DNA of 64,000 nucleotides from Calocera cornea HHB12733. Lineage: Eukaryota; Basidiomycota; Dacrymycetes; Dacrymycetales; Dacrymycetaceae. Under the pieces are notes generated by a model. The model was given only the letters and a program-made list of their open reading frames with translations. It was not told the DNA's origin and did not search any database. The translations under genes were made by a program, and so were the position numbers. Shown in pieces: positions 1-49,912 of this stretch (the first letter of the stretch is position 1; the number at the start of each line of letters is the position of its first letter). Location: contig KV423947.1 of the NCBI GenBank assembly GCA_001632435.1, positions 63,855 to 127,854 of the forward strand, given 5' to 3'.

Positions 1-109
1 TGTGCAACTAAAACTACAGTCATGGTCATGATCATGAACGCATGCCCATGATGATGACAGAAAGGCGCGGGCACCCGCTACAGAGAAACAACCCATACAC
101 CCTCTCCCC

Positions 110-860
110 CTACGCAGTGTACGCCGCCAATTCGCTCAGCCTAGCATCATGTGCCTGCTGGAGCTCTTCAAGCTCCTGCTTTGCATCACGCAATGCCCTC
201 TCCGCCTCTATCAGCGCATGCACCCTGTCGCAGAGCGAGTCGTTGAGTCGCAGTCGTTCGCGCAGGAGGATGTTCTCCTGCTTGACCTCTGCAAGCCGAC
301 ATTGAAGCACCTCGACAGTTCTGCCCTCTGCCAGCTGCGACCGCAGGGAATCCAACTTGACAGCCACAATGCGGAGCGTGTACTGAAGAAGGATGGCCCC
401 CCCCGGAGTGATGTTGGCTTGGCTGTCGCTAGCGTGGAGATCGGTGTACATGCGACGAGCCTTGTCGACCTCAGCCCACGTCGTATCCAGCGGGGGCAGA
501 TAGAAGCTCTTTCGATCTTGCATGTCCCTGAGCTCTTGCTGCAGGTGCTCGGTCCGGGCGACCAGCGGGTCGATTTCGTGATCATGATCCTGCTTTGCCA
601 ACATGCGATATTGTTCGAGAAGCTCGTTCTCACGCTCAAGATCATGGATGAGAGAGAGCGTCTTGATTGCCGCGGTGATGACAGGACTCTCATGCGTGAG
701 GAAGGCGAAGTTGCTGCTGATGCTCTTCAACGCCGTATCGATAGGGCGGCCTATCGCTAGCATCGTGTCGGCTGAGCCTAGGAGTGCGTTGGTTCTGGTC
801 CGGTATCAGCAAAGTCGCATGAGTTGTACTCATGATCACGTACATGGACATGCCGTTCAT
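110..860 (-). CDS. G1: coiled-coil protein of the KDZ segment, function unknown
   Basis: The model is two exons, 860-844 and 794-110, giving 233 residues; the exons sum to a multiple of three. The intron (795-843) has donor GTACGT, a GCTGATAC branch site and a CATGATC array just after the donor. The protein is almost entirely predicted coiled coil, with runs such as LERENELLEQYRMLAKQ and VKQENILLRERLRLND and no visible catalytic motif. A second array falls in the coding exon and reads as Asp-His-Asp-His-Glu. A TATATATA box at 924-931 lies about 65 bp upstream of the start. Layout and several blocks resemble G3 (4577-5233), so the two are probably paralogues. Function is unknown; a DNA- or transposase-binding scaffold is only a guess. 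Confidence 0.7.
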
Positions 861-1544
861 ATAGGGGATGCGGTTAGGAGGTTGGTTGTCGGAGGGTGGG
901 GCCTCTTGCGGTCCTGCAGCAAGATATATATAGGGCCTGGCAGGACAGCAAGGCGAAGGCGGTGCGCCACTCTGGCTGTGTCTCCGACTGCCTCCGTGAC
1001 CATCAGTCAGCCATGTTGGCATGATCTAGAACATGATTCCTCTTTTTCCGATGGACAACATTGTCATTTTCCATCTATACAGTACAATATGATGGAAGTA
1101 AGTCCATGCGGAACAAGTTGATAATCATAGTAAACTGTCCATATAGGAAGGGCCACCAGAGGGGACGGTAAGCCCGTTCGGGATCATGAACATGATCGTG
1201 GAAGTACTGTACAGGATTGAGTCGTAAGGGGGATGATAAGCCGACTTGGCAACATGATAATACTCGTGAGAGTTGCATTGTACAAGGTGGAGTCGTAAGG
1301 AATGCCTCTGAGCAAGGTCGTGGATGCATGTGTTGTCAGAAAAAGGACTTGAATCGAGATTTTTTTTGTTGTTATTTAGCTTTTGCGGTTTTTTTTGGAG
1401 TTTGATTTCTTGTGCGGTAGACGTGCGATCCGGATAATAATGGGTGGGCAGAAAGAGAGAGAGAAAAGCAGCGATAGAGTCGTGAAGGGTCACGACCATG
1501 ATCTTGATCATAATCTAGTAGGGATGGCAGGTTTCGACGCGATG
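861..1544. other. Intergenic spacer between G2 and G1
   Basis: No coding exon is supported here. It holds the G1 promoter (TATATATA at 924-931 on the minus strand), two CATGATC arrays (1182-1200 and 1491-1512) and a T-rich stretch near 1360-1400. Confidence 0.6.
924..931 (-). promoter_or_regulatory. TATA box of G1
   Basis: The sequence TATATATA reads on the minus strand about 65 bp before the chosen start codon of G1, a normal distance for a fungal core promoter. Confidence 0.5.
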
Positions 1545-3844
1545 TCAACGTAGACCGTGGGCCCAGTCGGTAACCAGCTGCCCTTCCATAGCGAAACACA
1601 GGTTATTGACTTCGGTGGCGTTGTTAGTGTTCCACAACAACACCACGGCCTTCTCCAGGTGCGGGCGCCACAAGAGAGGATCGCAGCACCAATAGATAGA
1701 AGCGACCCGTCTAGCAAATGCTTCTCTGGAGTTTGCCGCTTGGATGTTGTTCTCGTCCAGGTAGGTGATGATTGCGTCCTGCAACTGCTGTCTGACATCA
1801 TACGGCGGTTCTTCGGGTGGCTCTTCTTCAAAGACACGGGTAATAGGCTCGGCAGGGGTTGGAACATGAACATGAACATGATTGGGCTCATGATCGGGCT
1901 CATGATCATGAAGAGGAGGGTCGGCGTGCGTCGTCGTCGTCGTGGGTGCGGCGCCCACGGTATACAGCTCAGGGTCATTGAGTCTCCTGTACGCTTTCAC
2001 CCCGACACGGTTGGCAATATCGGGAGGGACGAGGGAAGTATTGCGAACTTCTTCAGCGTTGGCGTTGTTCATCAGCTCTCGCATAGGGATGATAGGCGGG
2101 TCTGTCAAGTTTTCCAGCGGGGTGAGCTTCTGAGCTTTTCTTTCTTTATTGATAGCTGCGAGTCGCTTGTAGTTCGTCAGATTCTCGTGGGCGATATCAG
2201 CTATGCCCTTCTTGAAAGCCACCGCCAGCTGGTTGCCGATACGCTTCATGCCCTCGTTATTCTGGATGAGTCGGGTGAAATGCACATGAACCTCGGGGAG
2301 TTTATCGGGGCCATCGTCGATTTTGGCGAAGAAGGTAGCTTGGACGAAGGCGCCGATGACTCGGTCTCCGAACTCGACCTGGAACAGTGGTCAGACGTTC
2401 CAGTCATGATCATGATCATGATCGTGACTTACGTGATCGAGAAGAGCCGGTACGTAGACTTTGGCGAAGAGGTTGCGACGTGGAATGGCACCTTTCATCT
2501 GCCAAGGATGTACAGCTTGCCCATGCAAATGAAACTTATCCCGATGACAGCCGTCGATTTGTCGGGGTTCATTCAACGCCCTCTTGCAGTCCCTTGCCCA
2601 TTGCCAAGAGTCCGTGTAGACGTACGAAGGAATCCTCGGATAGACGGGGAACTTCTCCAGCACTCGCTCCGTATTGTGCATATATGCGCTCCAGCTGATA
2701 ACATGGTCCTCAACGCGCCAAGGGTAAGCATCAGCGCGCTCCCCACCGGCGCTCAAGTCCGCTGCTGCGGCTTGGGCCTGCAGTAGGTCATCGTCCTGCA
2801 GAGGATCGTCGTCCCAGTCGCTGCTTTTCATGTCCACGACCTCTGCGGCAGGCGGAGGGCCCATCGGAAAGCTGTGGGTACGAGATGTGTTTTCGTTCCT
2901 GATAACTATGGATTCATGATCATGAGCATGATCATGAATCGTGGGTAATATCGGCAACTTACCAGCACGGGTCACGGGGTCAACTTGCATGGATGGCGGC
3001 GCACTGGACGCGACACTCCGGGCTGGGATCAGTGTAAGTGCATATCTGGACGGCATATATGCATACACGCACGTGGACGAACGCTCTCTGTGGCCTTAAG
3101 ACGACTGGTATCACTGGCTGCAATAGCTACGCACGCTCGTCAATATACGGACAATGCGGAAGGGTGTATGCATACCTGACGCTGCGTAGAACTCCCCTTC
3201 TTCTTGCATATCCTCGTCACCGTCGGAGGACTTCTCATGCATACCATCTAGGGAACGAAGCTCAGTCAGTCCACCTGAGAAGAGGACAAGCGCTTACTTT
3301 GAGCTAAAAGAGAGGACTGGGGGGTGGGCGGCGGCCCGGGTTTGACGGCTCGCGTCGCTTGGACTTGGACGGATGGAGCGGGACCTACTGACGATAGTCA
3401 GATACTCATGATCTCGATCATGAACATCTTCTTGCTTACCGGCGTCCGACTGAGTACTATATATGCGACTGTAGTCATCCGAACCGATCGCTGTGGGCAT
3501 TGTTAGTCATGTCATGCAGATAGGGGCGCATACATTTACCGCTAGCATCCCGATCCACAGTGGGCTGCTCTCCCATCGCGCGAGGACCCGTAACGCTGTT
3601 GTGGCGACTGTTGGAGGCTGTTACCATGGTGTGAGAGACAACATGATATGAGCTACCGAAAAGTGGACCCACGGCGTTTGCGCGACTGCGTGTTCACCGG
3701 CGTATTGGACTGACTGGGCGAGGAGGTGGTTGGCGCTGTGATCACGCTCGTCAGAGACGCTCGCTCATGTTCATGAGCATGAGCATGATCAAGCTTACTG
3801 TTAGCTCTGAGGTCGGCATACCACCTGGAGCGATCGGGTGGCAT
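1545..3844 (-). CDS. G2: orphan 605-residue protein of the KDZ segment
   Basis: Ten exons (3844-3799, 3735-3657, 3607-3540, 3490-3440, 3387-3298, 3247-3176, 3117-3073, 3022-2963, 2905-2433, 2378-1545) join into one frame of 605 residues. The first third is a low-complexity Pro/Ser/Thr and acidic region coded by eight tiny exons. The rest looks globular, with motifs such as YPWRVEDHVISWSAYM and WQWARDCKRAL, followed by a charged helical stretch. I do not recognise the family. Four of the nine introns carry a CATGATC array between donor and branch point, and a fifth array in the last exon reads as His-Asp-His-Glu and His-Val repeats. A probable leader exon (about 4060-3930) with its own intron lies upstream of the start. 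Confidence 0.7.
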
Positions 3845-4576
3845 AAGTCCTTGGCTTTACCTGGCGGAGATCGTTAGCGGGGAAGGACAACGATGTGTAC
3901 ACACGGGAGCTGGCTTACTGTTTGCGCCGGGGACAGAATGAGCTGGATACGTGAAAGGAGAGAAGCTTTAAGAGTATCGTGAAGAAGAGGATCTGGGGAT
4001 GATGGCGGACGGGAAAGAAAGGCGAGATAGGAAGACGCGCTGCGCGCAGGGTTATAAGTGTAGAGGACTAAGGCAATGCCAGTGCACTGCTCCCGAAGCG
4101 GAGGCTTTTTGGGCTGCTTCGGCAAAACCTCGCTATGGTGCATAACAGCTGTTCTCATGGTGAACCAGTAAAGATATAGAAGTACATTTCAGAATAGTGT
4201 CACATTAACTATTTCCAAGCTTGTTTGGAGAATTTGAGGTAGAATTCGAGGCTCCAGGAAGCGTTTAAGTTTTCCGAGCAGGGTCCGTGGGCCTTGCCTT
4301 GCTCGCAAGGACCGGAGAAGGTACAGTATCTAAGCAGCGGGCGATGCTATGACTAGGGCCTGACCATGAGCTTGATCATGATCATGATCATGATCACTAT
4401 TTGGTATGCAAACATCGCTAATAGACGCGCCGCAGGGACGGCGGAGTGAGGCATTGAGTCACAGGGACGGCGCGGTCAGGCATTGAGTCAGATTACGGGA
4501 TAGAGAAACATCGACGAGCATGATCATGAACTTGACTCTAGACGGTATAGAACATGGCGAAACAGCTATGAGTACA
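3845..4576. other. Spacer with G2 leader and repeats
   Basis: This interval carries the probable 5' leader of G2: a TTATAA element at 4052-4057 and a leader intron ending just before 3870. It also holds two CATGATC arrays (4363-4397 and 4516-4530) and a 29-bp tandem duplication. The 94-codon frame from 4158 down is better read as promoter plus leader than as a gene. Confidence 0.5.
4433..4490. repeat. 29-bp tandem duplication
   Basis: Two imperfect copies, 4433-4461 and 4462-4490, each start CAGGGACGGCG and end GAGGCATTGAGTCA or CAGGCATTGAGTCA. They lie between two CATGATC arrays in the spacer upstream of G2. Confidence 0.85.
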
Positions 4577-5233
4577 TTAGGTAGAAGATGCGATCTGAAC
4601 GGGCATCATCGTCAACGCAATAGCGCACTCGTGCTCCTGGCGTGCTCGGGCCATGTCGTCAATCCTCGAGTGGAGGAGCTCGTTTAGGCGGAACAAGCGT
4701 AGAGCCGAGTCCAGCTGTTCGGCACTCATCGCGTCGCGCAGGTTCTGGTTCGATTTGCTGACGATGCGCAGCTTGTCCGCTAGCGGCAACGTTTGGCGGG
4801 CAAAAGCGAGTTTGGTCTCGAGCTTGTTCAACTTCTCGGCGGCCCTGCGCAGCGCCTGGTCGATGGCAAAGGTGGACGTCCGACGGTCGGACAGCTGTGG
4901 GTTATGATTGGCAACAAGAAGATCCGCCTGTTGCAACGTCCATGCGATCATGCTCTCCTCGTGATCGAGCCGTTCCCGAGCGAATTCGATGCGAGTCTGG
5001 AAGTCGAGATGCGACAAATGCAGCGATTCTTGCAGAGCGATGTTCTGACGCTCGAGCAGCTGCACTTCATCGACGTCGCGGATCACGTCGGCAATGGGAT
5101 ACGAGCCCGTCATGTGCTCGATGGCCACGTTGATGCTCGTGAGCGACGACCGACTGAGTGACGATACGGCCTTGAGGGCAATCATTGGCATGTCGCCCGA
5201 GACGGAGGAGGCGGTGGGAGGCTTGTTCGTCAT
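4577..5233 (-). CDS. G3: coiled-coil protein of the KDZ segment, paralogue-like to G1
   Basis: A single exon of 218 residues is used from the Met at 5233. The frame stays open through a CATGATC array upstream (5261-5291), so an earlier start around 5270-5305 is possible. The protein is mainly predicted coiled coil, for example LLERQNIALQESLHLSHLDF and KLNKLETKLAFARQTLPLAD. It shares the order of blocks with G1: an ALK(A/S)(V/I)SS start, then long heptads, then a Leu-rich tail. No enzymatic motif is visible. It lies between the transposase gene and G2 in the same orientation, so it is probably cargo or an accessory factor of the element. Confidence 0.65.
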   Translation of the reverse strand: MTNKPPTASSVSGDMPMIALKAVSSLSRSSLTSINVAIEHMTGSYPIADVIRDVDEVQLLERQNIALQESLHLSHLDFQTRIEFARERLDHEESMIAWTLQQADLLVANHNPQLSDRRTSTFAIDQALRRAAEKLNKLETKLAFARQTLPLADKLRIVSKSNQNLRDAMSAEQLDSALRLFRLNELLHSRIDDMARARQEHECAIALTMMPVQIASST

Positions 5234-5526
5234 GATGCCAATGCTGAGGGCGTTTACCTTCATGATCATGATCATGGTCACGATCATGATGTCAGTTAAA
5301 CACCCGGATCCGAGAGAATATAGGGGGGCATACCAACGGCGAAAGGACAAATATATGAAGAGAGCGGCGAATGGGAAGAGAGGAGGAGTTAGGGTCCGCC
5401 ACGCGCGGGTCGCCTGGATCAAAAGAAGCGCTGCACCTCCCTCGCCGCGTCAGAAGGAGGACGAATGGGAGGCGAACATCGCCAGGCAGAATGCGTTAGA
5501 TTGAGTGATACATACAAACATCTATA

Positions 5527-8500
5527 TCAGATATCCTCGTCAAGTGCTTCGCTGTCGTACGCGTGACGCTTGCTCGTGTTAGATACGATCGGCGAAGCAT
5601 CGATTCCGCCCACTACGACTTCATAGGGATCATCCAATGGGACGGATTCCCAATTGTCCAATCCATCTTCGGATGAGCTATCTGACTCTCCGAAGTCAGT
5701 CGATGTCAGCGAAGTGGTGAAGAGAGTCGTATGGGAATTCACGGACTGCTCCGCCGCACGAATGAAAGGTAACCATTTTTGAGGGCCGAAAAGTCGGTTG
5801 CGCCAACGGAACCTCAGAAGGAGATGTTCCTTGAGGCGCCTTCGGATGTATGATCGCATGTGGTTATCTGGAGAGCCATCAGACGGTAGAACAAGCTCAT
5901 GATCATGATCATGATCATCACCTTCCGCATGGCTTTCTACGCTGCGAAGCACCTTGAGCTCTTCGCCCCACCATTGGAGCATATTGTCTGCATAAAGTCG
6001 AAGTCGCTGGGCCTCTTCCTCACATCGCTGTAAGGTGATATGTGCGGTGATGGCCTCACGAACGGAAGGATTCATCATCCACGGCTCCGCCGGAGATTCT
6101 TGACTTAGGAAGAGGTCTTGCCAGATGTCGTGATCTTCTGGCGGAGCTTCAAGCTCCTCTTCAATAAGTGCTTGTGGCAAGGCGATCCCCCAGGACGAAT
6201 TGTACCCTTCGCGTATGGAACGCACGTAGATGTTGAACTGCTTGACAGCGCGATTCAGAGTACCGGATCGTCTGGTAATGCCGGTTTTGATCTGTTGAAA
6301 CATTTTCTGCCCTGGACGGAAATCAATGTCAGCACGACGCGTATGCTCATGATCATGATCATGCACATACCAATGGGCTGATGGATGCCCCCCGCTGCAC
6401 GATTCAATCGTGACCTCTCCCACATTCGTTCGGCGACTCGCTGGCGAATGCGCGCCTTAAGATTTCGCGCCAATATAAGCGTTTGCACAGCGCCAGGGGG
6501 AACGCCGCTGAGCCGAGGATACACCTCCGCGATACCAAGCTGGTCGTATAGCTCATCGCCTCTTGAAACGAGTCGCTCCCAACTCTCAGTCATTTGAGAT
6601 AGTAGCACCCTGGCCTTCGAAGGGCCTAAGTCCCGCTCTAGAGATGTTCGAACGTTCTGAATGCTCGATTGCAGATCCTCGATATCGTTCTGGAGTTTCA
6701 TGTACGACTGAACCTTGCTTAGGATTCGCTTGGGAGCCACTGAGTACAAGATCATGAACATGAGCAAGATTGTCCTCCAATGGCAGAAACAACTTACAGG
6801 AGCGTACAGAGACCGCGGCGATGCGCTGTTTGGCGATTTGATCCTCGAGGGTGGATAGGTCGATGCCCGAAGCGCGCAGAACACGTTTCATTTCCTGGGT
6901 CTTGGAGGCCAGGAACTTGAATCGTCGGCGCATCCATCGGCCAAGGGATACTTGTCCAAGGGAAGCAGTGTGCAAGAACTTCCTGTCGAGAATGAAAACG
7001 TGTTTGTGTTTCTATCAGATGTATACAGTGAGACACCTAGGCGATCATCCTTAAGCAAAATACTGACCCCACTTCTTCTGAGAATAGGAATATATCGCCG
7101 GTGCCGACTCCAGATTCTTTCGCTGCCTTCTCCATTGGCCAGACCAAAGCCGGGACGACGTCGAGGGCTGTACACCAGCTGACAGGCCCATTGATGCCCG
7201 TAAGAGTGCAGTATGCTAACGGCCATCACAACACGAGGTCGAAGAGTACCTAGATAATCATACTGGGGCAGCGCATGAGGATCGATCCTCATGATCATGA
7301 TCAAGAACAGGGTGGATAGTACTCACCAGATTACAACTGTGATCGAGGACACAGCCCACGTCATAGAGTATGCCCAGGGTGGCAGAGGAGGGAAGCTCAG
7401 CCATGAGTTGTTGGATGATGGCAATTGCGTACATTTGCCGTTCACCAGGGGTGGTTATGTTGCAAACGACGAGGGGAATGTCGTGCACACAAGATCCAAC
7501 GACAAGGCCTTTCTCGTCATGAAAGCCTGGTACGCCATGAGAATCCTTCTCCTGTGCTGCCTTGAACGACTCCTTGCACGCTGTGACCACCTCGTCAGGC
7601 AGCGTCGAGTGGGGACGCACGGGCCCAGCACGATGCATCGCTCGTAGATCCTCCATTCTGCTCCCTACGGATGCCACCCATGCATCATCCAAGAAGAGTT
7701 GTGGCTCATAGAACCGAGGTCCCTGTCCGCCGTTGGTATTACGCCGATGATGGAAGTTCCCATCGAGTTGGATAAGCACATCCGGAAATCTGCATCATTG
7801 TCATGATCATGATCATGACAAGCGGGAGAGAAAGAGAATGGGCGTACCGACGGACATCGCGACCCCACTCCAACGAGGCAAAACATGCTGGGCACAACTG
7901 CCGTAGACGCATGCTGGCTCGCCCTTTCTGCAGTGCATCCGGTACAGACGGCTCAGACAACTCTGCAGGAACGATAGGTGCGTCCACCGGCTTCCTCAAG
8001 TATCCAATCTCCGCAGATTCCGGAAGGCATGGAAGGTGACTGCGGCGCTCTGCGTGGATAGTTTGCTCCAGCGCAGCCTGTAGGTGTGATTTGGCAACGT
8101 CGTACCATTGGACTGCGCTAGCCCACGCCCGTCGAAAAGGATCCTCGATGGGATGACCCTATGACACTGTCATTATCGGGACGAGTGGGGAATGAACGTG
8201 GGCGTACCTTCTCGTTGGTGTGGTACACCTCCCGTGCCTCATGAAACTGCTTCAAGGTTTCGCAGAAGGCCTCGCTGGGAGATGCGCAATCGGCGAACAA
8301 TTGTAGGTAGAAGTCGAGGAGCTCGACGGAGAACGCGAAAGTCGGTCGAACCGGGGTACTAGGCCAATATCCGCAGGTGACCAGGCGTGGTCCAATAGGA
8401 TGCTCCTGACAGTGCTTGGATATCTTAACGGTAAAACCTGAAGCATTTGAGCACATTGCAGGTTCATGATCATGATCATGAGGCTCACCATGGAACGTAA

Positions 8501-9005
8501 CACATCGGATACGGATCTCCCGGCTTTGGGAGCATGTACGGGTACAGAGCGTCGGCAGTAGGCTTTCATGATCATGATGAACTTGAGTGTATGGTCGTCC
8601 CATAATGTGCTCTAGTCCTGTGATGAGTGCGGGCATCAACGCGGCCCAGCGCTGGTACGCGGTGTCTCGGTGGGCTTGATAAGAAATCCGGCCGGGAGGA
8701 TCATACATCGGCGGGCTGGAAATGTTGATATCTTGCCACCCAGATTCCGACTCGGAGTCGAGGTCCTCGTAGGCGGTTGCTGGTGGAGTGAAGCTTGTGG
8801 TCGAAGATGGATGCCGCCGATTCACGTAGGGCGAGCGAAGGGGTACATGGAGTGAGCCAGGGAGCCATGAGGGTACTTGTCGGTCGGGCGACTTGGCTCG
8901 CCGCCGTTTGTTTGATGTCGTTGGCTGCGGGTGGACGTCGTCCGCGATAGAAGACTGTGGGCGATGAGGGCGTCGAGATTCGACGTGAAGTCGAGGCCGA
9001 GGCAT
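5527..9005 (-). CDS. KDZ (Kyakuja-Dileera-Zisupton) family transposase with CxC1-like N-terminal cysteine cluster
   Basis: Nine exons (9005-8489, 8437-8208, 8158-7848, 7789-7327, 7262-7068, 7011-6798, 6739-6371, 6311-5922, 5867-5527) sum to 3030 nt, giving 1009 residues with no internal stop. An N-terminal Ser/Pro/Arg-rich tail is followed by a CxC1-like cluster (Cys residues around CTRTC...IRC...KHC, then GYWPSTPVRPTFAFS). Next comes CPACF and the RNase H-like core: LIQLDGNFHHRR with the first catalytic Asp, SCVHDIPLV, LGILYDVGCVLDHSC, and NGEGSERIWS with the late acidic residue. The C-terminal third is coiled coil and acidic. All core motifs expected of an active KDZ enzyme are present. Six of the eight introns hold a CATGATC array, and a seventh array is coding (near 8565). 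Confidence 0.92.
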
Positions 9006-9210
9006 GTTTGCACAACAATAATTGCCAGCAAGCCAGGGCCAATGTGGAGGATCGCGACGCGTGAAGCGGGCTTCCGAGTAACGTGACGTAGGCCGAACTT
9101 TGTTTATATTTCCAGTACAAGTCTCACGCTCATGATCTAGAGAGGTGAACATGGTCATGGTCATGGTCATGACCATGTTCATGAGTGGCAATGGCATTTA
9201 GAAGATACTA

Positions 9211-10082
9211 CTACCTTAGCAGTCGGTCTCTATACTCTCGTCTGTACATTTGATACCAGCATGATTGATGAATCCTTGAGCTGCTCCTCGCTTTCCATGC
9301 TGGTCCATGTTCGCGATCATGAGATATGTCATTGATAAAACCAGGGATTAGGACATCTACGAGATTGAGACAGAGGAAAAGGACATTCAGAATGGGCGAC
9401 AGGGCGGGAAAATCGTTCGAATCGGAGGAGGGGGAAGGACATCGATATATATGACCTGCCGCATAGCATAGCGCCTGGATCCAGGCAGTGAAACAGCTGT
9501 ACTGGGACGACTCTAGCATCACGCAGTGTAAGAAACAGATATACAGGGGTGGAGTGAGAATGGACTGACCTCCGGATCGACCTCAAAGCGTATATCATAT
9601 GAGTAATCCCCGGCATTAACAGAGGATACCGAGGGAGGCGAGGGGAAAGGGACTGCTGCCGGATGGGCGGGAGGAGCGATGGCGTCGACATAGGTCAGCT
9701 CCACATCCTGGCAGTACGGACGACCCCGCTTGGGCTATCGTGTAGACATCAGCTTAAGTATTGTGGCCCATGAAGCTGAAGAAGACAAGCGGCTCACCCG
9801 AATGAGAATTCTCTTCCAGACAGTGTTATGCTGCGGACAGAGGCGCCGATTCAACCCCGCGGGCTGAGGGATAATGGGCGAGGCATTCCTGCGAGCGGGG
9901 AGCAGGTGACGATTGTGCGCTGGTAGCTGGTGTCGATCGTGATCTCGATCATGTTCATGACACATGACATTATTGACGAGGCTCGACGGCAGGCTCGCAA
10001 GACCATGCTGGCGATTGCGAACCCAAGGAAGCAATGTTGCCTGCCTGAGAGGACGCGGGGAAGGTTGACGAGAGGGTGCCAT
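9211..10082 (-). CDS. G5: small orphan protein of the KDZ segment
   Basis: Four exons (10082-9798, 9734-9570, 9501-9456, 9356-9211) sum to 642 nt and code for 213 residues. The N-terminal part is basic and Pro/Arg-rich; the middle has a KRGRPYCQDVEL stretch and a Pro/Ser-rich linker; the end is basic. No family is recognised. The third intron is long for this region (99 nt). One CATGATC array (9934-9968) falls in exon 1, where it reads His-Glu-His-Asp-Arg-Asp-His, and a short variant (9306-9323) falls in exon 4. A TATAAG element lies about 50 bp upstream of the start. It is the most upstream gene of the co-directional set. Confidence 0.55.
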
Positions 10083-10275
10083 GCAGGACGCAGAGACGGA
10101 CGAGGCGAGGTGGTGAGATCAGACGGGCTTTCTTATAGGAGAGGACCTTCGAGGGCCGCGTCGGGTTGTCAACAGAAGATAACTGAGCATATGCAGTGAT
10201 TTCAATGGGCCAGGGCAAAATAAAGCATGTTCCGGAGTCGGGGCGACGCAGGATGTTCATGAACATGACAATAGT

Positions 10276-10861
10276 CACAGTAATGTTACAGCAATAACGT
10301 TGGCGTGCAACGAAACATTATAGTGAGAGGAGAGACGGAAACAAGCCCCATGCTTGTGATTCCGCGGAGGCAGATACAATATGTGCGCGGTTGTAATATG
10401 TACAGAACATATCACATGAGGCAGGGCCTCGTAGGCCGGCACGGCAGTGCCACTTTGGGGCCCTTCGTGGTGTCGCTGGCTGTGTGCCAGAGGTGGTCGG
10501 ATTCCTATTTTTAGTCCCGAGCTCGGCCGCGGCTGCAATACCGGGCGCGGAGAATAACCAGCGCACGTGGTGCATTATCTGATTACATTATCGATTCTCG
10601 ATCTATTTCTTGACCGCTCTCGTCTAACCTCTTTCTGGAACATGAGAGTGCAGGCCGAAATGGACCCTCATTTGAAAGGGGATGCCCACTCGCTCTCTCT
10701 CTCGCTGTCTCACGAGCACGCTGGCACGTTCGTCGGTGCATCTGCGTCATCTTTCCCAGTCTGGGATTGCCTTTAAAGGATGGCGTGGGCGTCTGTAACT
10801 CACCTTGGCCAAGTCTCTTGGACCTCTTGGTGCCCAGTCGTCCCAGCCTCGATCCAAAATC
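10276..10861. other. Spacer at the right edge of the KDZ segment
   Basis: No gene is supported. The spacer lies between the last CATGATC array and the start of the acid phosphatase and should contain both the element boundary and the phosphatase promoter. I saw no clear terminal inverted repeat. Confidence 0.4.
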
Positions 10862-13106
10862 ATGAAGCTCACTCTCCTCGTCTCCGCCGGCAGCGTCATT
10901 GTGTCGACCCTCGCGGTCGAGCTGGTGTCTGACATCAGCATCATCTCCGAATACTGGGGCCGTGAGCATTGTCCCTAGCGCTGTCACATGCCTCCGCTAA
11001 TCGGGCGTTGCATTCCAGAGATCAGGCCGTACGCGGACAACGCGCCGGGCTATTTCGGCGTTGAGTTTACCGGCCTGCCCAACGGCTGCGGTATCGAGCA
11101 GGTCCACCAGCTCCAGAGGTGCGCCGCCGCTATTATTGGGTGCAGAACCGCCTACTGATCCGTTGCTACAGGCACGGTGCTCGCTACCCTACGAGTGCTA
11201 CCGAGGATGGTGTCGATGACCAGGCTCTCGCATCCAAGGTGCGCCCCACTTGTGATTAGGCTTGGCAGAACGAGCGCTGATGGATATGCAGATCTCTGCC
11301 TTCATCTCCGGCGGCGGCAAGTTCACCGGTGCCCTGAGCTTCCTCTCTGGATACCAGCAGGACATTGACTCTTCCGGTCTTCTTGTCGAGACCGGTGCTG
11401 CTCAGCTCTTTACCTCGTATGCATATTGAGCACATGTCTCATCGCGCCGAGCTGACGTGTTATAAACAGGGGTACGCAGTTCTGGAAGTGAGACTTACCA
11501 TAACGCCGCTTACTCATATGCTGATAACTACGACAGCCTTTACGGCCGTCTGCTGTACGGTGCCAACCCTGGTCAGCCTTACTACAATGCCTCCAACCCG
11601 GATGGTGCGTCTCGTCTTCTCGCCCTTATCAGCTCGATCGGCTCGCTGACACAAAGCGCAGGCACTCCTCGTACCAAGCCCGTGATCCGCACGACCTCTC
11701 AGCCGCGTATCCTCCAGTCTGCGATCTTCTGGGCGCAGGGCTTCTTCGGCTTCCAGACCAACACCTCCGACCTGTACGACCTCGTTGTCATTCCCGAGGG
11801 CGGCACGGAGAACAACACCCTGGCGTCTTACGACTCGTGCTTCAACGATGATGTCGTTCGTGAGTCGAAATGCGCTGTGAAATCCGTCGCGTGCTGATCG
11901 ATCTCATAGCCCTCGGTGTTCTCGTATGTCTCCCTGCTATTCCCTCTGTGTGTCGGTCCTAATACCGAATTTGCGTAGGGCGACATCGATGTGTTCACTT
12001 ACATTCCCCTGTACCTCCAAGACGCAACCGCCCGTCTGCAGCAGTATATTGAGGGCGACAACTTCACTCTGACCGTGAACGACACGTACGCCATGCAGTC
12101 CATCTGCGCGTACGAGTACAGCCTGCTCGGCTCGTCCGACTTCTGCGGCCTGTTCACCCTGGATGAGTGGAAGGGTTTCGAGTACACGCTCGATATCGAG
12201 TACTACTGTATGTGCGCTCGTAGTATGTTGAGAAGATATCCCCTGATCTGAAGATCTTTAGATGATTACTCCTGTCAGCGCTAGTTTCGCTCTAATACGC
12301 CTCTGTCTTACTCGGATCTTGCTTCTAGACGGAAACCCGACTGGCCGCGCGCAGGGTGTCGGCTACGTCCAGGAGCTCCTTGCGCGTCTCCAGAACCAGT
12401 ACATCACCTCCTCCAACTCGAGCGTCAACTCGACCCTGGACAACAACGCTGCGACCTTCCCCCTGGGTCAGCCTTTCTACCTCGACACATCCCACGATGA
12501 TATCATTGTATGTTGTCTGACTTGCGCAGTTTCCCACTTGCTGAGCCGCTCTCACAGATCTCCGTCCTCACCGCGATGAGCCTGGACTACCTCAAGCCGA
12601 CTCTACCCCTCGATGTCTTCCCCCCGCCGGAAGACCGTCCTTTCAAGCTGTCCCACCTGACTCCCTTCGGTGGTCGCCTCACCACCGAGGTCATCGGCTG
12701 CGCGGTGGCCAACCCCGAGGCGAAGCAGTACCCTGAGACGACCTACAAGATCTTCACCAACGGGTACGACCCTACGAACGCGCCGTTCAAGTTCATCCGG
12801 TGCGCATGCTTTCTATCGCTTGTATATGCGTCTCTGACTGCGCGTACAGTATGCGCCTGAACCAGGGTGTCCTTCCCTTGACCACCATCCGTGGCGGCTT
12901 CTGCCCACGCAAGGACGGTCTTTGCGCGTTGAATGATCTCATTGCCAGCCAGGTCAACCTGACCCAGCTCGCCAACTGTACGTCACGTCCGATACATACA
13001 TGTTTGCTGTGGACTAACGCTTGATGCAGACGATTACGGCTGCTTCGCCAACCAAACCGAAGTTATCGCCAACTTCAACTTCGACGGCGCCGCATTCCCT
13101 GCTTAG
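10862..13106 (+). CDS. Secreted histidine acid phosphatase (phytase-like)
   Basis: About 530 residues in roughly 13 exons. The enzyme should hydrolyse phosphomonoesters such as phytate outside the cell through a phospho-histidine intermediate. A hydrophobic signal sequence (MKLTLLVSAGSVIVSTLA) starts the protein. The N-terminal part has EYWGQIRPYADNAPGYFGV and then the active-site RHGARYPT, split by an intron after the first two bases of the Arg codon. The proton-donor motif is DTSHDD near two thirds of the chain. Asn-X-Ser/Thr sites are frequent, as expected for a secreted protein. Two exons are tiny: 14 nt at 11910-11923 and 12 nt at 12262-12273, the latter restoring a YYYDYSYGNPTGR stretch. 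Whether phytate or another phosphate ester is the substrate cannot be read from sequence. Confidence 0.9.
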
Positions 13107-47750: not shown

Positions 47751-49912
47751 TTACTTTCTCGATCTCCCACGCTTTCGCCGTGCCGGCGCAGTCTGCATTT
47801 CGACACTTTCACGTTCCGCCTTTCTCTTGTGCGTAGGGGTCGGAGATGCCGCAGGGACAGACAGCTCGTTCGACTGCTGAGTAGTCCCTCTACGTCGGCC
47901 GCGTACCCTCGCGGCAATGTTGTCCACCACTTCTACTTTGACAGGCCGCTCCTCCTCAGTCGACACAACATCCTCCTGCTTCTCGGTTTCCGCCTCTTTC
48001 AGAGCAGCAGCGGTGTCAGGCCCTGGCGAAGAACTTGGCGCAGGCTCCGTCTCCACTGTCGGTGTTGATTTAAGCTTGCCCTGCACCCGTCCGTCCACAG
48101 GCTCGTCCATCGGCTGGTCCACCGCCTCTTCCACCAGCTCGTCCACCAGCTCGTCCACAGGTTCGTCCACCGCCTCCTCCACCGACTCTTCCACCGGTTC
48201 CACCGATGCCGCACTGGCCGAAGCCTGCCCCTCCAATTCCTCGCGTATCCTCGAGCTATGTATCGGTCTCGGCGGGGTATACCCCGGTATCCCCCCGTCA
48301 GCGACCCACTGCTCATACGCGGCCTGCCGCGCCGGACCAAGCTGCGTGTACCTTTCCTCGAGCTGCACAGGGCGTCAGCGACCGCTTCGAGCGTAACGGC
48401 AAGTATGAAGCCGATAAAGAAATGAACCTACCGACTTCTCCGTCCGCCCCGGAAAGAGGTGCATCATCTCTGCAAAGCCCAGCCTCAGGTTCTCCTTAGC
48501 GTCCACGAGCCGCCCGTCCTCCTCGTCCGCCCAATTCGCATCGGCCTTCTCCCGGTCGGCAGGCGTCATAAAGTGCCACCGCATGCGGCACTGCGTCCTA
48601 CTGCGGCCCGGAACGCTCTCCGCGACGCGTTTCCAATCGACGGACGCGTCCTGTGCTTCGTTTCGAACGGCCTGGACGAGCGCGCCGTCTTCCACCGCCG
48701 TCCAAGCGCCCTTCCGCGTCGAGTCGTCGTCTAGCTGCTGCCACCGGTTGCGCGCCCCGCGGGCTGTACGCCCGTGGCCGATGTATTTAGCAACTGAACG
48801 CGTTCCTCGGTAATGAGTTCCAGTCGCGTAGAGATACGCGTAAACACGCACCTTTCACCCAGCTAGTCGTCCCGAACCGCGTAACGCCGTCCTCCAGCCT
48901 GTCGTCCTCCTCGTTCGTCCAAAACTCGCGCGGCCGATAGACGACGCTAGCGCGATACGTGCGCACACACTGAATGACGGTCCGTCTCGTCTGTGTCAAT
49001 CCACCGTATCAACCGCAGCTCGCTTATTGGGTGATGCGAAAGAGCCCACCTGGAACTTCTCGTTATGCGCCGTGACGATCCCGTCCCAATCCAGGCCACT
49101 CTGCTTGTCGTCCCTGCCCCTCTCCTCCTTCTCTGCCAACTTCTTCTTCACTGCGTCAACGAGAGAGTCTCGCTCAGATTCTTCCCACTCGGCGTTGTTG
49201 ATCGCCATGTCGTCCACTCCGAGCCACTGGATCCTGCACTCCGCGCCCGTCCGCTCAGGCTTGGCCATACTATTGTTCCTCTGAATCCGAGCGACGTTGT
49301 CCCACCGCACCTGATCGCCCCGCATCGCACGCAGCGCAGCCTCGCCGTCGAACGTCTTGAGCGCTTCGAGCGCGCTTCCACCGCGCGACTGGACATCGAG
49401 CATCAAGGCGCGGCGGAGCTCGGTTTGGAGCGAGATGCGCAACGCCGCACGCTCCTTTGAGCTCCAGGGCCGAGGGGTCGTTAGGACGCGGTGCTCTTCC
49501 GCGAGAGCGAATGAAGAGTGGAAGGGAGAGTCCTGATGCCGCTGAGCTAGGTATAGGTAGCATGGAGAGGAGGACGCACGTCGGCCTTCAGGTTGACCCA
49601 TTTGCTCGGACCCACAGCGGGCAGAGCGCCCTTCACGAAGACGATCTCCTCGCCCTTCTCCTCAAAGTCCTCATCAGAGATATCCTCCACCCCATCCTCG
49701 TCCTTCCACCGCTGCTTGACAGCCTCGAGCTTCCCGACCTCTCCCTGCCTCCGTGTCAGCGCGCAAGCTGCGATGAGGATGAGGAGCGTACGCACCAGGA
49801 GGGACTCGACCGCCTTGAGCCTTGCCTGGCACTCTGCTGCAAAGTCGAGAATGTCCTTCTGGTGGTCCTTGTTCGCCGAGAGGGCGCTGTCGGTCAGCCC
49901 CAGCGCGGCCAT
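47751..49912 (-). CDS. Myb/SANT-domain DNA-binding protein
   Basis: A protein of roughly 600 residues starting MAALGLTDSALSANKDHQKD. After an acidic segment (DEDGVEDISDEDFEEKGEE) come several Myb-like units. One reads RPWSSKERAALRISLQTELR. A clearer pair is FWTNEEDDRLEDGVTRFG with GRTARGARNRWQQL, and GAWTAVEDGALVQAVRNEAQ with VPGRSRTQCRMRWHFM. A fourth is ANWADEEDGRLVDAKENLRL. The regularly spaced Trp residues and the RSRTQCRMRW recognition helix are typical. The C-terminal part carries Glu/Pro/Val-rich repeats (VDEPVDELVDELVEEAVDQP) and a basic KRKAERE...RRKRGRSRK end like a nuclear signal. The layout recalls SNAPC4/Bas1-like Myb proteins. The target genes are unknown. Confidence 0.8.
48070..48200 (-). 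repeat. Coding repeat of (E/D)(P/L)VDE units in the Myb gene
   Basis: A degenerate 12-bp-period repeat encodes successive PVDE, LVDE and AVDQ units on the minus strand. Such tracts vary in copy number between strains. Confidence 0.6.

What the first reader, a model, noticed from the sequence alone, without database searches (positions are those of the whole stretch)
21..10269. A 10 kb segment punctuated by 24 self-complementary CATGATC arrays at quasi-regular spacing
The same short palindromic motif recurs about every 445 bp (most gaps 300-650 bp) through five genes and their spacers, in introns, exons and intergenic DNA alike, and then stops. Only one isolated similar copy was noticed in the remaining 54 kb. 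Because every array is its own reverse complement, all copies can pair with one another as DNA or RNA. The pattern is not a tandem satellite and not a normal terminal repeat. It fits dispersed binding sites for the element's own transposase or accessory proteins, or a self-recognition mark of the element. I know of no described KDZ element with this architecture.
Basis: partly seen in the sequence, partly recalled or inferred. Interest (0 to 1): 0.88.

Follow-up and report, generated by a model that had tools for sequence, protein, structure and literature searches.

The report
Jumping gene stamped with own code
A large fungal jumping gene carries its own short self-complementary DNA word every few hundred bases along its whole length, and related jumping genes in the same genome carry different words, which looks like a family-specific address by which each element recognises its own DNA.

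Summary
In the window, 23 CATG-type arrays (reader: 24) lie at 21-10267. The host is Calocera cornea. Four more full copies exist (62-76% identical, TIRs, perfect TSDs). Of 51 array sites, 27 are in all five copies; spacing is more regular than random. In exons, third codon positions are 84.1% identical inside arrays, 54.4% outside, so the DNA word itself is under selection. All 70 rows of a 17-mer genome-wide lie inside elements bounded by this TIR, including a 1,551-bp derivative without long frames (two copies, 5 mismatches) that shares little but the TIR ends and four arrays. Several other KDZ loci carry other words (GGCY, CTAG, CGTACG, TCCGGA, AACGTT); on a tree of 16 loci the words follow transposase lineage. 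Most likely these are cis-acting sites read by an element-encoded protein, like CACTA subterminal repeats or VANDAL/VANC motifs but element-wide. The reader protein is not identified.

The parts
1..10495 (.). In-window part of a 15,660-bp KDZ DNA transposon (C34:58690-74349); its left 5,165 bp lie outside the window
   Evidence: TIR pair and perfect 8-bp TSD, four homologous full copies
10484..10495 (-). Right terminal inverted repeat core, CACCTCTGGCAC on the minus strand
10496..10503 (.). Target site duplication GTCGGATT (same 8 bp left of C34:58690)
5527..9197 (-). KDZ transposase gene, several exons; outer limits are open-frame limits. Arrays at 6347, 6750, 7289 and 7801 judged intronic, 5897, 8464 and 8566 exonic
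   Evidence: Pfam CxC1 and KDZ, codon periodicity, splicing judged against NCBI proteins of C. viscosa (P0002) and of this element (P0003), partly by eye
8232..8417 (-). CxC1 cysteine-cluster domain of the transposase
   Evidence: PF18802, E 1.8e-9
7309..7782 (-). KDZ transposase domain, first part
   Evidence: PF18758, E 4.4e-22
7068..7241 (-). KDZ transposase domain, second part
   Evidence: PF18758, E 4.4e-14
110..805 (-). Accessory gene (open frame 231 aa), unknown function, modest codon periodicity across copies
1545..3095 (-). Accessory gene in two adjacent open frames with clear codon periodicity; an exonic array at 1865 and an array (2404) near the junction of the frames
4577..5449 (-). 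Accessory open frame, weak codon periodicity
9211..10118 (-). Small accessory open frames in a stretch with some codon periodicity
21..50 (.). array
580..591 (.). array
830..852 (.). array
1182..1194 (.). array
1865..1913 (.). array (exonic)
2404..2425 (.). array
2914..2939 (.). array
3406..3425 (.). array
3766..3787 (.). array
4374..4397 (.). array
4519..4531 (.). array
5260..5291 (.). array
5897..5918 (.). array (exonic, read as DDHDHDHE)
6347..6363 (.). array (judged intronic, transposase)
6750..6762 (.). array (judged intronic, transposase)
7289..7304 (.). array (intronic, transposase, by the NCBI model P0003)
7801..7820 (.). array (intronic, transposase)
8464..8483 (.). array (exonic, read as HDHDHE)
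8566..8579 (.). array (exonic, read as HHDHE)
9130..9183 (.). longest array in the window, near the start of the first transposase frame
9315..9324 (.). array
9950..9959 (.). array
10258..10267 (.). array, 228 bp inside the right end

Best explanation
The arrays are cis-acting recognition sites for a sequence-specific DNA-binding protein encoded by this KDZ lineage. The protein (the transposase's own cysteine-cluster region or an accessory protein) binds runs of CATG about every 390-465 bp along the whole element. By binding together, the molecules mark the long element as one unit, help bring its ends into a transposition complex, and probably keep it open. A derivative without long frames but with the same TIR and arrays can then be moved in trans. 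Other KDZ lineages use other words, so each acts on its own DNA. Shown: selection on the DNA word, conserved positions, near-confinement to TIR-bounded elements, presence on a recently moved derivative, lineage-specific words. Inferred: a binding protein, its being element-encoded, bridging, and the exact step helped.
For: 27 of 51 sites shared by all five copies at 62-76% overall identity; pairwise sharing 72-94% against a null of 11-14% (at most 40%); CV of gaps 0.37-0.44 against 0.95. Third codon positions identical in 211 of 251 cells in exonic arrays against 4,315 of 7,929 elsewhere. CATG kept while the linker varies. All seven inward-facing pairs of the exact TIR core genome-wide, five large copies plus two copies of a 1,551-bp element, carry the arrays; the two small copies differ at 5 sites, one has a perfect 8-bp TSD, and with arrays masked the best match to the large elements is the terminal 15 bp. 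On a tree of 16 transposase cores the words need 3 changes, the least possible. A second family, CTAG-NN-CTAG, has the same period-6 design inside TIRs, with 20 of 22 genome-wide triple sites in its two copies.
Against: No binding protein identified; the one structure prediction, of a left-hand accessory gene, was of no use (mean pLDDT 38). Arrays are not enriched in the outer 500 bp of the ends (2-3 per copy against 2.2-2.6 expected), unlike classical end-binding repeats. Eight of 16 further KDZ loci do not exceed the controls on palindromic hexamers, and C186 shows no clear word. GGCY words also occur singly in many other places. No expression, binding or transposition data.
Confidence: 0.55

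Rival explanations
1. Anti-silencing only. An element-encoded protein binds the arrays over the whole element and removes or blocks silent chromatin or DNA methylation, as VANC proteins do on VANDAL elements; it plays no direct part in transposition.
For: Whole-length coverage, introns and exons alike; family-specific motifs as in VANC (PMC5735166, passages). The host has cytosine methyltransferase matches on C104 and C177. CpG observed/expected in the five elements is 0.92-0.97, like flanks (0.93-1.01), while some other KDZ loci are depleted (C79 0.22, C13b 0.45, C40a 0.52, C228 0.74, C233 0.76).
Against: The small derivative carries the arrays although it has no open frame of 100 aa to keep on. 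VANC motifs lie mainly in non-coding DNA and in one orientation; these are also in exons and palindromic. Low copy number could explain normal CpG equally well. CpG-depleted C228, C13b and C40a belong to a lineage that has a word of its own.
Confidence: 0.25
2. Self-avoidance: protein bound along the element stops the transposase from inserting into its own DNA (target immunity).
For: Even coverage of the whole element and lineage-specific words. The five copies have similar lengths, 15.7-16.6 kb, so none holds another.
Against: Five copies are too few to show avoidance; a 1.5-kb derivative hardly needs it; I recall nothing that links KDZ transposases to target immunity (not searched).
Confidence: 0.05
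3. The arrays bind a host protein (transcription factor or chromatin protein) recruited by or against the element.
For: Conserved DNA-level sites in all copies.
Against: KDZ lineages in one host genome have different words that follow transposase lineage, odd for one host factor; CATG and CTAG arrays are rare elsewhere in the genome, though GGCY words are not.
Confidence: 0.07
4. They are ordinary microsatellites that arose by replication slippage and carry no function.
For: Unit of six bases; some arrays such as 4374-4397 are near-perfect hexamer runs.
Against: The CATG core is kept while the linker varies, positions are conserved, third codon positions are constrained, and the long form of the word is confined to one TIR family.
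Confidence: 0.03
5. The function is at RNA level: transcripts pair through the palindromes.
For: Most arrays are close to their own reverse complement.
Against: Present in introns, intergenic DNA and a derivative without long frames, and in genes of both strands. Not tested directly.
Confidence: 0.05

Closest known systems
CACTA/EnSpm subterminal repeats bound by TNPA-type proteins
   Same: Repeated short motifs, in part palindromic, acting in cis; non-autonomous derivatives are moved in trans as long as they keep the cis-determinants; motifs differ between subfamilies along with diverged binding proteins (PMC2613891, passages)
   Different: Those lie in the outer few hundred bases; here arrays run through the whole 16 kb with no end enrichment, through exons and introns; different transposase superfamily
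VANDAL elements and VANC anti-silencing proteins (Arabidopsis)
   Same: Short motifs enriched in one element family, coevolving with an element-encoded protein (PMC5735166, passages)
   Different: VANC motifs are mainly in non-coding regions, in one orientation, often within tandem repeats; no VANC homologue was looked for here; no methylation data
Fungal KDZ elements (Zisupton, Dileera, Kyakuja; Cryptococcus KDZ1-3)
   Same: KDZ transposase, CxC1 domain in Cryptococcus KDZ1-3, TIRs and 8-bp TSDs in several (PMC12730594 and PMC12810828, passages)
   Different: Dispersed palindromic arrays are not mentioned in the passages seen; PF20515 (TET/JBP type) has one match in this genome, at C84, not in a CATG element

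Membership tests
KDZ DNA transposon | KDZ transposase domain with CxC cluster | tested here: met
   PF18758 and PF18802 above cut-off
KDZ DNA transposon | Terminal inverted repeats | tested here: met
   CACCTSTGGCAC paired at both ends in all five copies
KDZ DNA transposon | 8-bp target site duplication (Zisupton type; Kyakuja has 7 bp and no TIR) | tested here: met
   perfect 8 bp in five of five copies
VANC-type anti-silencing system | Element-specific short motif confined to one family | tested here: met
   CATG 17-mer 70 of 70 rows; CTAG triple 20 of 22 sites; less clear for GGCY
VANC-type anti-silencing system | Element-encoded protein that binds the motif | not testable with these tools
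   no binding data; left-hand gene model unreliable
VANC-type anti-silencing system | Loss of methylation on bound copies | tested here: inconclusive
   only indirect: CpG ratio 0.92-0.97
VANC-type anti-silencing system | Motifs mainly in non-coding DNA | tested here: inconclusive
   9 of 34 C34 arrays lie wholly in coding blocks that cover about 40% of the element
CACTA-type subterminal repeats | Motifs concentrated near the ends | tested here: not met
   2-3 arrays in the outer 1,000 bp per copy against 2.2-2.6 expected
CACTA-type subterminal repeats | Non-autonomous derivatives keep the motifs | tested here: met
   1,551-bp derivative with four arrays

The most novel reading that the evidence does not exclude
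KDZ transposons of this fungus carry a lineage-specific address code: a short palindrome repeated every few hundred bases over the whole element, read by a co-diverging element-encoded protein, so that coexisting KDZ lineages recognise, mobilise and protect only their own DNA, coding-free derivatives included.
Probability: 0.45. Interest if true: 0.9.

Novelty: new variant of a known kind. Interest (0 to 1): 0.8.

Why it matters
It gives a directly testable case of how coexisting transposon lineages in one nucleus tell self from non-self. The CATG, GGCY and CTAG elements form a natural motif-reader set in one genome: swap the word or the protein and see which element moves or stays open. It also gives a simple way to find KDZ elements, including coding-free ones, by their word, and raises the question whether the many fungal KDZ elements elsewhere have the same layout.

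Tried and rejected
Chance or composition: rejected by Markov simulations and control windows. Microsatellite slippage: rejected by linker variation, position conservation and codon-position constraint. Classical end-binding repeats alone: no end enrichment. A TET/JBP gene inside the element: the single PF20515 match in the genome is at C84:37597, not in a CATG element; whether it belongs to the C84 KDZ element was not settled, as the 5 kb fetched there has only two AACGTT sites.

Led nowhere: AlphaFold of the left-hand gene (mean pLDDT 38); relatives of the KDZ core in viral contigs (none confirmed); a Calocera viscosa homologue (P0002) is spliced and partial, so it cannot show arrays. C61 gave no clear TIR and its words run to the edge of what was fetched.

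Results against or short of the general reading: by the palindromic-hexamer test 8 of 16 further KDZ loci exceed all 32 controls (C228, C3, C273, C35, C42, C162, C103, C84) and 8 do not (C40a, C13b, C10, C37, C64, C233, C79, C186). C64 has a high 8-mer (18.5); the 8-mers of C40a (9.2) and C13b (7.1) are within the range of controls, one of which reached 17.3, so the 8-mer test is not clean. I read DNA of 24 of the 31 KDZ places that I count; not read were C238 and C265 (they look like twins of C103 and C233), C164, C40:150330, C169, C58 and C8. The tree used 16 of 23 loci; seven (C103, C233, C84, C79, C35, C10, C186) were dropped because one or both exons had no tblastn hit, and C37, a near-copy of C10, was not put in. 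On it GGCY is not one side of a branch (2 changes, none of 200 bootstrap trees with 1) because C3, on a long branch, falls inside; only 3 of 13 inner branches are firmly supported. The reversed control pattern gave 74 hits, more than the 22 of the pattern itself, but it reads GATC-NN-GATC, which the CATG arrays contain. In one search the GGCY pattern gave 157 forward and 166 reverse hits against 49 and 53 for its reversed control, many of them single and away from KDZ genes among the listed rows. In one search 100 of 146 rows were listed; 6 of those 100 lie outside the TIR-bounded elements. The TIR searches were exact, so elements with altered ends would be missed. A first codon-position count took an intronic array as exonic; one search repeats it without, and the report uses. 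The coding blocks were set by me. Absence from print rests on the searches, open-access papers only; the original papers on KDZ with TET/JBP and on Zisupton were not read.
Full report
What is there. The window is C34:63855-127854 of a 32.1-Mb fungal assembly in 302 contigs. Protein hits on contigs of exactly matching lengths name it Calocera cornea HHB12733 (Dacrymycetes): CALCODRAFT_506497 on a contig of 342,448 bases, the length of C13, and CALCODRAFT_431953 on one of 220,030, the length of C34. In window 21-10267 there are 23 arrays by a fixed rule. The arrays are runs of CATG separated by two bases; AT is the commonest linker but many others occur. The C34 element has 128 rule hits against 2.1 expected, the remaining 53.4 kb of window 3 against 2.8.

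The carrier. Comparison with homologous islands on C12, C13, C81 and C82 gives sharp ends. Each copy is 15.7-16.6 kb, begins and ends with the TIR core CACCTSTGGCAC, and is flanked by a perfect 8-bp duplication (GTCGGATT, GGTCCATA, CCTATCGC, TGACTCGA, ATGCAAGC). The window thus holds the right two thirds of the element, up to 10495. It encodes a transposase with KDZ and CxC1 domains plus several accessory genes, one of them left of the window (CALCODRAFT_506497 type); the accessory frames that were tested match no Pfam family at its cut-off. Codon-position patterns across the five copies show that the transposase and several accessory genes are kept by selection.

The arrays are selected as DNA. 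The five copies are 62-76% identical. Each has 34-43 arrays. Grouped on the alignment they form 51 sites, of which 27 occur in all five, 5 in four, 4 in three, 4 in two and 11 in one copy; pairwise 72-94% of positions are shared, against 11-14% on average and at most 40% when one set is shifted. Mean gaps are 386-465 bp with a coefficient of variation of 0.37-0.44, against 0.95 for random placement. Within coding blocks set by me, third codon positions agree in 211 of 251 cells inside arrays and 4,315 of 7,929 outside (84.1% against 54.4%). In exons the word is read as HDHDH or MxMxM. In the transposase, splicing judged against NCBI proteins puts four of the seven C34 arrays in introns, and aligned gaps with arrays occur in all five copies; in some copies the protein alignment ran over an intron, so introns with arrays were not counted exactly.

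Confinement. Genome-wide, the 17-mer TCATGATCATGATCATG gives 70 rows (reversed control 1); all 70 lie inside elements bounded by the TIR core: 66 in the five copies and 4 on C17 and C142. Of the 100 listed rows (of 146) of a 13-mer, 6 lie outside. The TIR 12-mer gives 25 hits: seven inward-facing pairs and 11 single hits, with 15 hits for the reversed control pattern. The two extra pairs, C17:168874-170424 and C142:14354-15904, are copies of one 1,551-bp element differing at 5 sites. It has 360-bp TIRs, no open frame of 100 aa, and arrays near 161, 565, 1080 and 1364, 284 to 515 bp apart; 12 rule hits against 0.2 expected. With arrays masked, its best match to the large elements is the terminal 15 bp (E 0.36), with a weak 70% match over about 70 bp at the ends. 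C17 has a perfect TSD CCTTCCTT; C142 has CCGCTGCG on both sides but with four extra bases on the left. A recently moved element without long frames that keeps little but the ends and the arrays is the strongest sign that the arrays act in cis and are read in trans.

Other lineages, other words. KDZ domains occur in 31 places by my count, of which I read DNA from 24. C61, C204, C110, C64, C42, C273 and C162 carry runs of GGCY. C103 carries CTAG-NN-CTAG with 42 tandem pairs against 1.1 expected between TIRs at 107377 and 119576, and 20 of the 22 CTAG triple sites of the genome lie in it and its twin on C238. C3 has CGTACG, C35 TCCGGA, C84 AACGTT, C228 CTGCAG. Of 16 such loci, 8 exceed the best of 32 control windows on palindromic hexamers and 8 do not; C186 shows no clear word. 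GGCY words also occur singly in many other places. On a tree of 16 transposase cores, CATG (support 97/93) and CTGCAG (100/100) are each one side of a branch, and the four words need 3 changes, the least possible, against 8.0 when shuffled; GGCY is broken only by C3, which sits on a long branch.

How it most likely works. A protein encoded by the lineage binds the palindromic core repeatedly along the element. Two known systems show the two halves of such a role: TNPA of CACTA elements binds subterminal repeats that are cis-determinants of transposition and differ between subfamilies (PMC2613891, passages), and VANC proteins bind family-specific motifs and lift silencing (PMC5735166, passages; PMC10398659, abstract). 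The derivative favours a part in mobilisation. The host has methyltransferase matches and some KDZ loci are CpG-depleted while the CATG elements are not, which allows but does not show anti-silencing: these elements are few and diverged, and C13b, C40a and C228 are depleted although their lineage has a word.

What is new. In the KDZ papers seen (PMC12730594, PMC12810828; passages) no dispersed arrays are described, and the searches listed no paper that I recognised as describing them. Only open-access papers are held, and I read passages or abstracts, not whole texts. I rate it a new variant of a known kind: a KDZ transposon with element-wide, lineage-specific recognition arrays.

Noticed in passing
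L048:354-1904 and G000:C17:168874-170424: A 1,551-bp element without long frames, two copies 99.7% identical, with 360-bp TIRs, the CATG-element TIR core and four CATG arrays; probably a recently mobilised derivative.
   Followed up: yes
L035:7696-7786, L028:3501-3602, L038:8-48, L026:168-206, L034:3622-3676, L037:3462-3482, L036:435-466: A second, localised motif: two to four copies of ACCAGATCTGGT or close variants, roughly 20-50 bp apart, on what looks like the upstream side of the transposase in GGCY elements and also in C3 (CGTACG), so shared across different dispersed words; operator-like.
   Followed up: partly
G000:C84:37597-38148 and 49365-49733: The only PF20515 (TET/JBP type) match of the genome lies 11 kb from a KDZ transposase whose locus is rich in AACGTT; whether both are in one element is open.
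   Followed up: partly
L043, L027, L023: Strong CpG depletion at some KDZ loci (observed/expected 0.22, 0.45, 0.52), a sign of past cytosine methylation in this fungus.
   Followed up: partly
G000:C103:107377-119576 and C238: CTAG-type KDZ element whose contig ends at the outer TIR; C238 mirrors its array sites coordinate for coordinate, either a second recent copy or an assembly duplicate.
   Followed up: partly
window 10862-11900: Host gene next to the element reads like a histidine acid phosphatase (phytase); recognised from memory, not tested.
   Followed up: no
L010:5607-8976: Left-hand plus-strand accessory gene; its first exon was found in all five copies, and one of its later frames has a distant match in the C61 (GGCY) region (31% over 78 aa); a candidate reader, fold unknown.
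   Followed up: partly
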